Source: Ochotona curzoniae (Eukaryota > Chordata > Mammalia > Lagomorpha > Ochotonidae). From it: a stretch of 64,000 bases of DNA. This document shows, in pieces, positions 53,534 through 53,934 of the stretch. Within the stretch, counting starts at the first letter, position 1, and each line of letters starts with the position of its first letter. Under the pieces are notes generated by a model. It saw only the letters and a program-made list of their open reading frames with translations, searched no databases and had not been told where the DNA came from. The position numbers were made by a program, and so were the translations under genes. Location: assembly GCF_017591425.1 (NCBI RefSeq), contig NW_024466512.1, positions 15,875,001 through 15,939,000 on the forward strand, read 5' to 3'.

Positions 53534-53542
53534 AAGAGTTAT

Positions 53543-53850
53543 AGGGCCCGGCGCAGTGGCGCAGTGGTGCAGGTCCTCACCTTGCATGCCCGGGATCCCA
53601 TATGGGCGCCGGTTCTAATCCCGGCAGCCCCGCTTCCCTTCCAGCTCCCTGCCTGTGGCCCGGGAAAGCAGTCGAGGACGGCCCAAGGCTTTGGGACCCT
53701 GCACCAGTGTGGGAGACCCAGAAGAGGCTCCTGGCTTCGGATTGGCATAGTATCGGCCAGTTGCGCTCACTTGGGGAGTGAATCATTGGACGGAAGATCT
53801 TCCTCTCTGTCTCTCCTCTCTGTATATCCGCCTTTCCAATAAAAAAAGAA
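53543..53850 (+). mobile_element. C-SINE, young subfamily, full length, sense
   Basis: GGGCCCGGCGCAGTGGCGCAG at the 5' end, B box GGTTCTAATCC at 53611-53621, GGCCCGGGAAAGCAGTCGAGG and TTTCCAATAAAAAAAGAAAA. CpGs are largely intact. A 9-bp duplication AAGAGTTAT is at 53534-53542 and 53851-53859. The next insertion on its right uses the same target word. Confidence 0.95.
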
Positions 53851-53867
53851 AAGAGTTATGGTGAGGA

Positions 53868-53918
53868 GTCTACGGCCATACCACCCTGAACGCGCCTGAT
53901 CTCGTCTGATCTCGGAAG
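53868..53918 (+). pseudogene. 5S rRNA 5' fragment, tailless retropseudogene
   Basis: Fifty-one bases match the first 51 nucleotides of vertebrate 5S rRNA from GTCTACGGCCATACC through GATCTCGGAAG, with one change (C to T at 5S position 30, window 53897). It is flanked by a perfect 19-bp direct repeat AAGAGTTATGGTGAGGAGT at 53851-53869 and 53916-53934. The repeat overlaps the 5S start by GT and the 5S end by AAG. There is no A tail. The internal promoter of a 5S gene (A, IE and C boxes, roughly positions 50-97) is absent, so it is not transcribable as a 5S gene. Confidence 0.93.
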
Positions 53919-53934
53919 AGTTATGGTGAGGAGT

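What the first reader, a model, noticed from the sequence alone, without database searches (positions are those of the whole stretch)
53534..53934. 5S rRNA fragment inserted without an A tail, at the same nick site as a SINE
Seen: the word AAGAGTTAT occurs three times, at 53534, 53851 and 53916. Between the first two lies a young SINE; between the last two lies a 5S rRNA fragment (nt 1-51) with a perfect 19-bp duplication AAGAGTTATGGTGAGGAGT and no poly(A). The 5S sequence overlaps the duplication by AAG at its 3' side, the bases that would let a nicked target end in CTT prime inside 5S RNA, and by GT at its 5' side. Known: L1 machinery can give 'tailless retropseudogenes' from internally primed or truncated small RNAs. 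Inferred: the 5S piece is such a case, and the TT^AAGAG nick was used twice, once by 5S RNA and once by the SINE. The single substitution suggests that it is young.
Basis: partly seen in the sequence, partly recalled or inferred. Interest (0 to 1): 0.78.

Follow-up and report, generated by a model that had tools for sequence, protein, structure and literature searches.

The report
A tailless 5S rRNA retropseudogene
A piece of the ribosome's small 5S RNA was copied back into this mammal's DNA by the usual jumping-gene machinery without the usual A tail, and a common mobile element sits at the same cut site; this is a known kind of event, of which this genome holds many.

Summary
5S nt 1-51 lies at 53868-53918 between two identical 19-bp copies, with no A tail. 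Each flank has one place in the genome. It is a typical tailless 5S retropseudogene, a class described by Noll et al. 2015. In 82 dispersed 5S copies read (of 430 exact 5'-end matches), none is full length. Ends cluster at nt 39-43, 50-51 and 88-91, at or beside bases predicted unpaired. Of 70 copies with a clear duplication, 63 share 2 or more bases with 5S at the junction, against 7% or 25% under two nulls. The focal AAG match is typical. The one substitution is at a CpG and also occurs in two tandem 5S genes, so the insert may be unmutated. Divergence cannot order SINE and 5S. Nick preference favours 5S first at TT/AAGAG, then the SINE at the same site (rough 14:1). No empty site could be examined. 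In passing I found tandem 5S genes with a 10-nt deletion (64 copies) and retrocopies of that type that often begin 7 nt upstream of the normal start, which looks newer than the finding itself.

The parts
53534..53542 (+). SINE target-site duplication, 5' copy (AAGAGTTAT, 9 bp); preceded by TACTT, the TT/AAGAG nick
53543..53850 (+). young SINE (about 305 bp) whose 3' end is an internal A-rich run; the leading A at 53543 is also seen in 2 of 9 relatives
53851..53869 (+). 5S target-site duplication, left copy (19 bp); its first 9 bp are also the SINE's 3' duplication
53868..53918 (+). 5S rRNA nt 1-51, C30T at 53897, no A tail
53916..53934 (+). 5S target-site duplication, right copy (19 bp); AAG shared with 5S nt 49-51 (inferred priming bases)

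Best explanation
A 3'-truncated, tailless 5S rRNA retropseudogene made by target-primed reverse transcription with L1 enzymes. A bottom-strand nick at CTCTT/AAG exposed a 3' end ...CTCTT whose CTT paired with 5S RNA nt 49-51 (AAG) beside an internal loop. cDNA ran to nt 1, and staggered second-strand cutting gave the 19-bp duplication. Most likely the 5S came first and the SINE RNA, perhaps itself primed at an internal A-run, later used the left nick site again, duplicating 9 bp. Shown: anatomy, duplication, junction match, unique flanks, many sister copies. Inferred: L1 as agent, the priming step, the order.
For: 19-bp exact duplication and AAG overlap; unique flanks. Sister copies: 82-copy sample with no full-length copy and hot-spot ends; duplication/5S overlap of 2+ bases in 63 of 70 and 3+ in 47 of 70 (59; the focal copy is one of the 70), against 7.4% and 1.9% for random joining and 24.8% and 15.6% when the same duplication-finding procedure is run on joins made without homology at the real end positions. 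Ends at or next to a predicted unpaired base in 69 of 69 non-deleted copies, against 48 of 72 positions. 28 exact nt-51 end patterns, 22 followed by A (26; at least 2 of the 28 are longer copies with a C52 change). L1 ORF1-domain copies, many without stops, are abundant. Order: before the nick TT 28 of 69, AA 4 of 69, focal left out; background AA-type sites about twice as common.
Against: No empty site or second individual was available. The order rests on small counts (4 AA cases) and on a background from the window and fetched loci. The 9-bp SINE duplication is short; only 1 of the 70 5S duplications is that short. A pre-cut 5S fragment rather than internal priming is not excluded by this locus alone. 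The junction excess is smaller under the stricter null.
Confidence: 0.9

Rival explanations
1. SINE first, 5S second: the SINE inserted at TT/AAGAG and later 5S RNA was primed at the junction of the SINE's A-rich end and its duplication (AA/AAGAG).
For: The sequence fits equally well; A-rich SINE ends are plausible targets; 4 of 69 other copies have AA before the nick.
Against: Per-site preference for TT over AA before the nick is about 14-fold in this genome's own 5S copies; the ratio is the same in the 33 copies whose duplication starts AA or AG (14 TT, 2 AA). Divergence is neutral: SINE 2 non-CpG substitutions in about 304 bp, 5S and duplications 0.
Confidence: 0.22
2. The template was a pre-cut 5S 5' fragment (nt 1-51), not full-length RNA primed inside.
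For: Ends recur at loop positions, where nucleases also cut; the 2026 L1-chimera paper raises targeted processing for 5S ends at 46 and 90 (passages).
Against: 63 of 70 junctions share 2 or more bases with the target, as priming at chosen bases predicts; Noll et al. report no matching cut RNAs and favour internal priming (Results read).
Confidence: 0.15
3. One complex event placed SINE and 5S together (template switch or twin priming).
For: They lie side by side with the same first nine target bases.
Against: A single event gives two copies of the target, not three; each insert has its own complete pair.
Confidence: 0.03
4. The 19-mers are part of a repeat or segmental duplication with 5S by chance.
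For: One more 19-mer copy exists on C1341.
Against: That copy shares only 21 bp; both flanks have one place each.
Confidence: 0.01

Closest known systems
Tailless 5S rRNA retropseudogenes (Noll et al. 2015, PMC5322556; class named by Schmitz et al. 2004, not held, recalled)
   Same: 5'-complete, 3'-truncated at a loop, no A tail, target duplications, target bases matching the RNA at the junction, L1-like nick
5S/L1 chimeric insertions (Cell Genomics 2026, PMC13174262, passages read)
   Same: 5S fragments starting at nt 1 and cut near 46 and 90, with duplications
   Different: Those are joined to L1, mostly antisense, in one event; no L1 piece is joined here
Nested SINE insertion at a reused L1 nick
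   Same: SINE with duplication at a TT/A-rich site
   Different: The partner insert is a tailless small RNA, not another tailed element (comparison from general knowledge, no call)

Membership tests
tailless retropseudogene | copy of a cellular RNA cut short at its 3' end, 5' end complete | tested here: met
   nt 1-51
tailless retropseudogene | no oligo(A) at the 3' end | tested here: met
   GGAAG runs straight into AGTTATGG
tailless retropseudogene | flanking target-site duplication | tested here: met
   19 bp, no mismatch
tailless retropseudogene | target complementary to the RNA at the junction | tested here: met
   AAG here; 63 of 70 copies with 2+ bases, nulls 7.4% and 24.8%
tailless retropseudogene | truncation in a single-stranded region | tested here: met
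   nt 49-50 unpaired in the predicted fold, nt 51 paired next to them; (prediction only)
tailless retropseudogene | L1 endonuclease-like nick | tested here: inconclusive
   TT/AAGAG if 5S first, AA/AAGAG if second; group -1 T 44 of 70
tailless retropseudogene | made by L1 protein | not testable with these tools
   L1 ORF1 domain is abundant in the genome; no activity test
5S/L1 chimera | 5S joined to an L1 sequence inside one duplication pair | tested here: not met
   only 5S between the 19-mers

The most novel reading that the evidence does not exclude
The genome keeps a second class of tandem 5S genes with a 10-nt deletion between start and internal promoter (64 copies found on C444, C966, C1358 and C1022). 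RNAs of this type were made in the germline from a start shifted about 7 nt upstream, and tailless retrocopies of them preserve that shifted start. Tailless retropseudogenes can then serve as a fossil record of pol III start sites, a natural version of promoter-spacing experiments.
Probability: 0.7. Interest if true: 0.55.

Novelty: new member of a known kind. Interest (0 to 1): 0.33.

Why it matters
The locus is a clean, young example of internal priming without an A tail, and its pairing with a SINE at one nick makes the order testable with one relative's genome. The wider set shows loop-located ends and 2-3 base junction matches in one more genome. The deleted-5S class with shifted 5' ends could make tailless copies useful as a record of past pol III start sites.

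Tried and rejected
Ordering by divergence: SINE 9 substitutions (7 at CpG sites, 2 not) and 3 one-base gaps against a consensus of 10 copies that includes itself; 5S and duplications 0 non-CpG; no power. C30T as proof of a particular source gene: 2 of 22 distinct C452 copies with an exact word carry it (one gene listed twice counted once), but among non-deleted dispersed copies it looks about as common as other CpG changes (by eye), so undecided. The 12 sample copies ending at 32-37 by ungapped matching first looked like C30T copies; they are mostly a 10-nt deletion. Template slippage at priming as the cause of that deletion: rejected, since tandem genes carry it and some retrocopies continue to about nt 90. 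I first took the gene at C966:194447 for a third C30T gene; reading it showed a deleted-type gene. Rfam at gathering threshold found nothing in the window. No relatives of this genome are held by the genome search, so no empty-site test. Paper searches touching 5S variants, start shifts or lagomorph 5S DNA (listings only) showed no title on point; no wider claim of absence. One search was a faulty script (wrong pattern) and is replaced.

Full report
What is there. The 5S piece (nt 1-51) is at 53868-53918, between identical 19-mers at 53851-53869 and 53916-53934, with GT and AAG shared. It differs from canonical 5S only by C30T; the canonical form was recalled and then matched without difference by tandem genes on C452. 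A SINE lies between the first two AAGAGTTAT words. The left flank (134 bp) and the right flank (246 bp) each have one place in a 2.08-Gb assembly. The 19-mer has three places, the third sharing only 21 bp.

The sister copies. The genome has 430 exact matches to 5S nt 1-25 with C or T at nt 24, tandem genes included. The tool listed 100 in contig order: 18 on C444 (tandem) and 82 dispersed on C1-C431; I read all 82 (sequence; analysis). Ungapped ends fall at 39-43 in 30, 50-51 in 9, 88-91 in 27, 32-37 in 12, and 4 elsewhere. With gaps allowed, 5 of 82 ends move and the furthest is nt 101, so none is full length. The exact 5S 3' end occurs 107 times; of the 100 listed, 93 are in clusters on five contigs and 7 stand alone (my reading of the list). 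So dispersed copies with an intact 5' end are nearly all cut short. The sample misses copies with changed or missing 5' ends and covers C1-C431 only.

Junctions. Pooling the sample with other fetched loci gave 102 distinct loci, the focal one included. 70 had a duplication score of 9 or more at the junction with an end in 39-120 (54 of these in the 82-copy sample). The duplication shares 2 or more bases with 5S in 63 of 70 and 3 or more in 47 of 70. Random joining gives 7.4% and 1.9%. A stricter null, running the same search on joins made without homology at the real end positions, gives 24.8% and 15.6% (2968 joins). The excess stands under both. The other 32 of 102 were left out: no clear duplication, tandem genes, or deleted-type ends. 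The extra loci are biased towards nt-51 ends and T at nt 30 by the queries that found them. Of 17 copies ending at 50-51, 14 start their duplication with AAG or AGA; of 25 ending at 88-91, 14 start with AGA. All 69 non-deleted sample ends lie at or within one base of an unpaired base in the predicted fold, against 48 of 72 positions; strictly at an unpaired base, 45 of 69 against 27 of 72. Ends are clustered, so these are not 69 independent tests. This is what Noll et al. 2015 describe for human 5S: tailless, ends in loops, target complementarity, internal priming (Abstract, Introduction, Results and passages read; figures not seen). L1 ORF1 domains, many without stops, are abundant (150 scored of 11,351 candidates).

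Order of the two inserts. Mutations do not decide: the SINE has 2 non-CpG substitutions against a 10-copy consensus, the 5S none outside a CpG. The two histories differ only in the 5S nick: TT/AAGAG if the 5S came first, AA/AAGAG if it came after the SINE. Among 69 other 5S nicks TT precedes 28 and AA 4, while AA-type sites are about twice as common in the background (6118 against 2962). That gives roughly 14:1 for 5S first, from few AA cases and a background with some overlapping loci. I hold 5S-first at about 0.75. The SINE's 3' end stops at an A-run; of nine relatives 5 go on with TAATAAAAATAAATCT, 3 with a close form and 1 with neither (flanks read by eye), so the SINE may also have been primed internally.

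Age. C30T sits in a CpG, and the same T is in two C452 genes. The insert may thus carry no change of its own. It is young, but no date can be given.

An unexpected class. The 12 sample copies ending at 32-37 mostly carry a 10-nt deletion (nt 30-39, between two GATCTCG words); the gapped comparison deleted-type, of which L103 and L134 are doubtful. 8 of the 12 show at least 4 nt, 6 of them 7 nt, of the 5S gene's upstream GTGTGTC before nt 1; 0 of 70 others show 4 or more. With free duplication offsets, among the 70 copies with a duplication score of 8 or more, 10 of 12 deleted-type and 4 of 58 others have an apparent 5' extension of 4+ nt; those 4 do not match GTGTGTC. The deletion is also in tandem genes: 71 exact matches to a deletion word, 34 on C444, 23 on C966, 5 on C1358, 1 on C1022 (context not read) and 8 elsewhere. 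Three such genes were read: C444:1292 (also C26T, C91G and a changed 3' end), C966:127736, and C966:194451, missed by the word and full length with 4 other changes. The 63 word-matched array copies have C at the deletion junction, C966:194451 has T, as do 6 of the 8 matches elsewhere. A T-type source form therefore exists in the arrays, though the actual source gene is not identified. Against the simple reading: several deleted-type retrocopies (L150-L153) have no clear extension. Reading: with 10 nt removed between start and internal promoter, pol III starts about 7 nt upstream, at a purine after a pyrimidine. Promoter-spacing experiments on frog 5S genes are recalled, not looked up.

Verdict. 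Observation confirmed, interpretation supported, class already published: a new member of a known kind. The nick reuse is a nice coincidence. The deleted 5S genes with start-shifted retrocopies are the more novel lead. On checking I withdrew one tandem C30T gene and added the stricter junction null; the odds did not need to change.

Noticed in passing
G000:C444 (L156), C966 (L148, L157), C1358, C1022; retrocopies L073, L074, L075, L101, L112, L114, L115, L123 (L121 and L149 with one mismatch): Tandem 5S genes with a 10-nt deletion (63 exact matches plus C966:194451) and tailless retrocopies of that type whose 5' ends lie about 7 nt upstream of the normal start (8 of 12 deleted copies, 0 of 70 others).
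   Followed up: partly
window 53838-53850: The focal SINE stops at an A-run, while 8 of 9 close relatives continue with TAATAAAAATAAATCT or a close form; it too may have been primed internally.
   Followed up: partly
whole genome, 5S 3' end pattern: 7 isolated full-length 5S 3' ends among 100 listed of 107, against 430 5' ends with tandem genes included: dispersed 5S copies are nearly all cut short.
   Followed up: partly
L046, L052, L053, L069: Four nt-51 copies share C14G, not a CpG change, so possibly a further source-gene variant.
   Followed up: no
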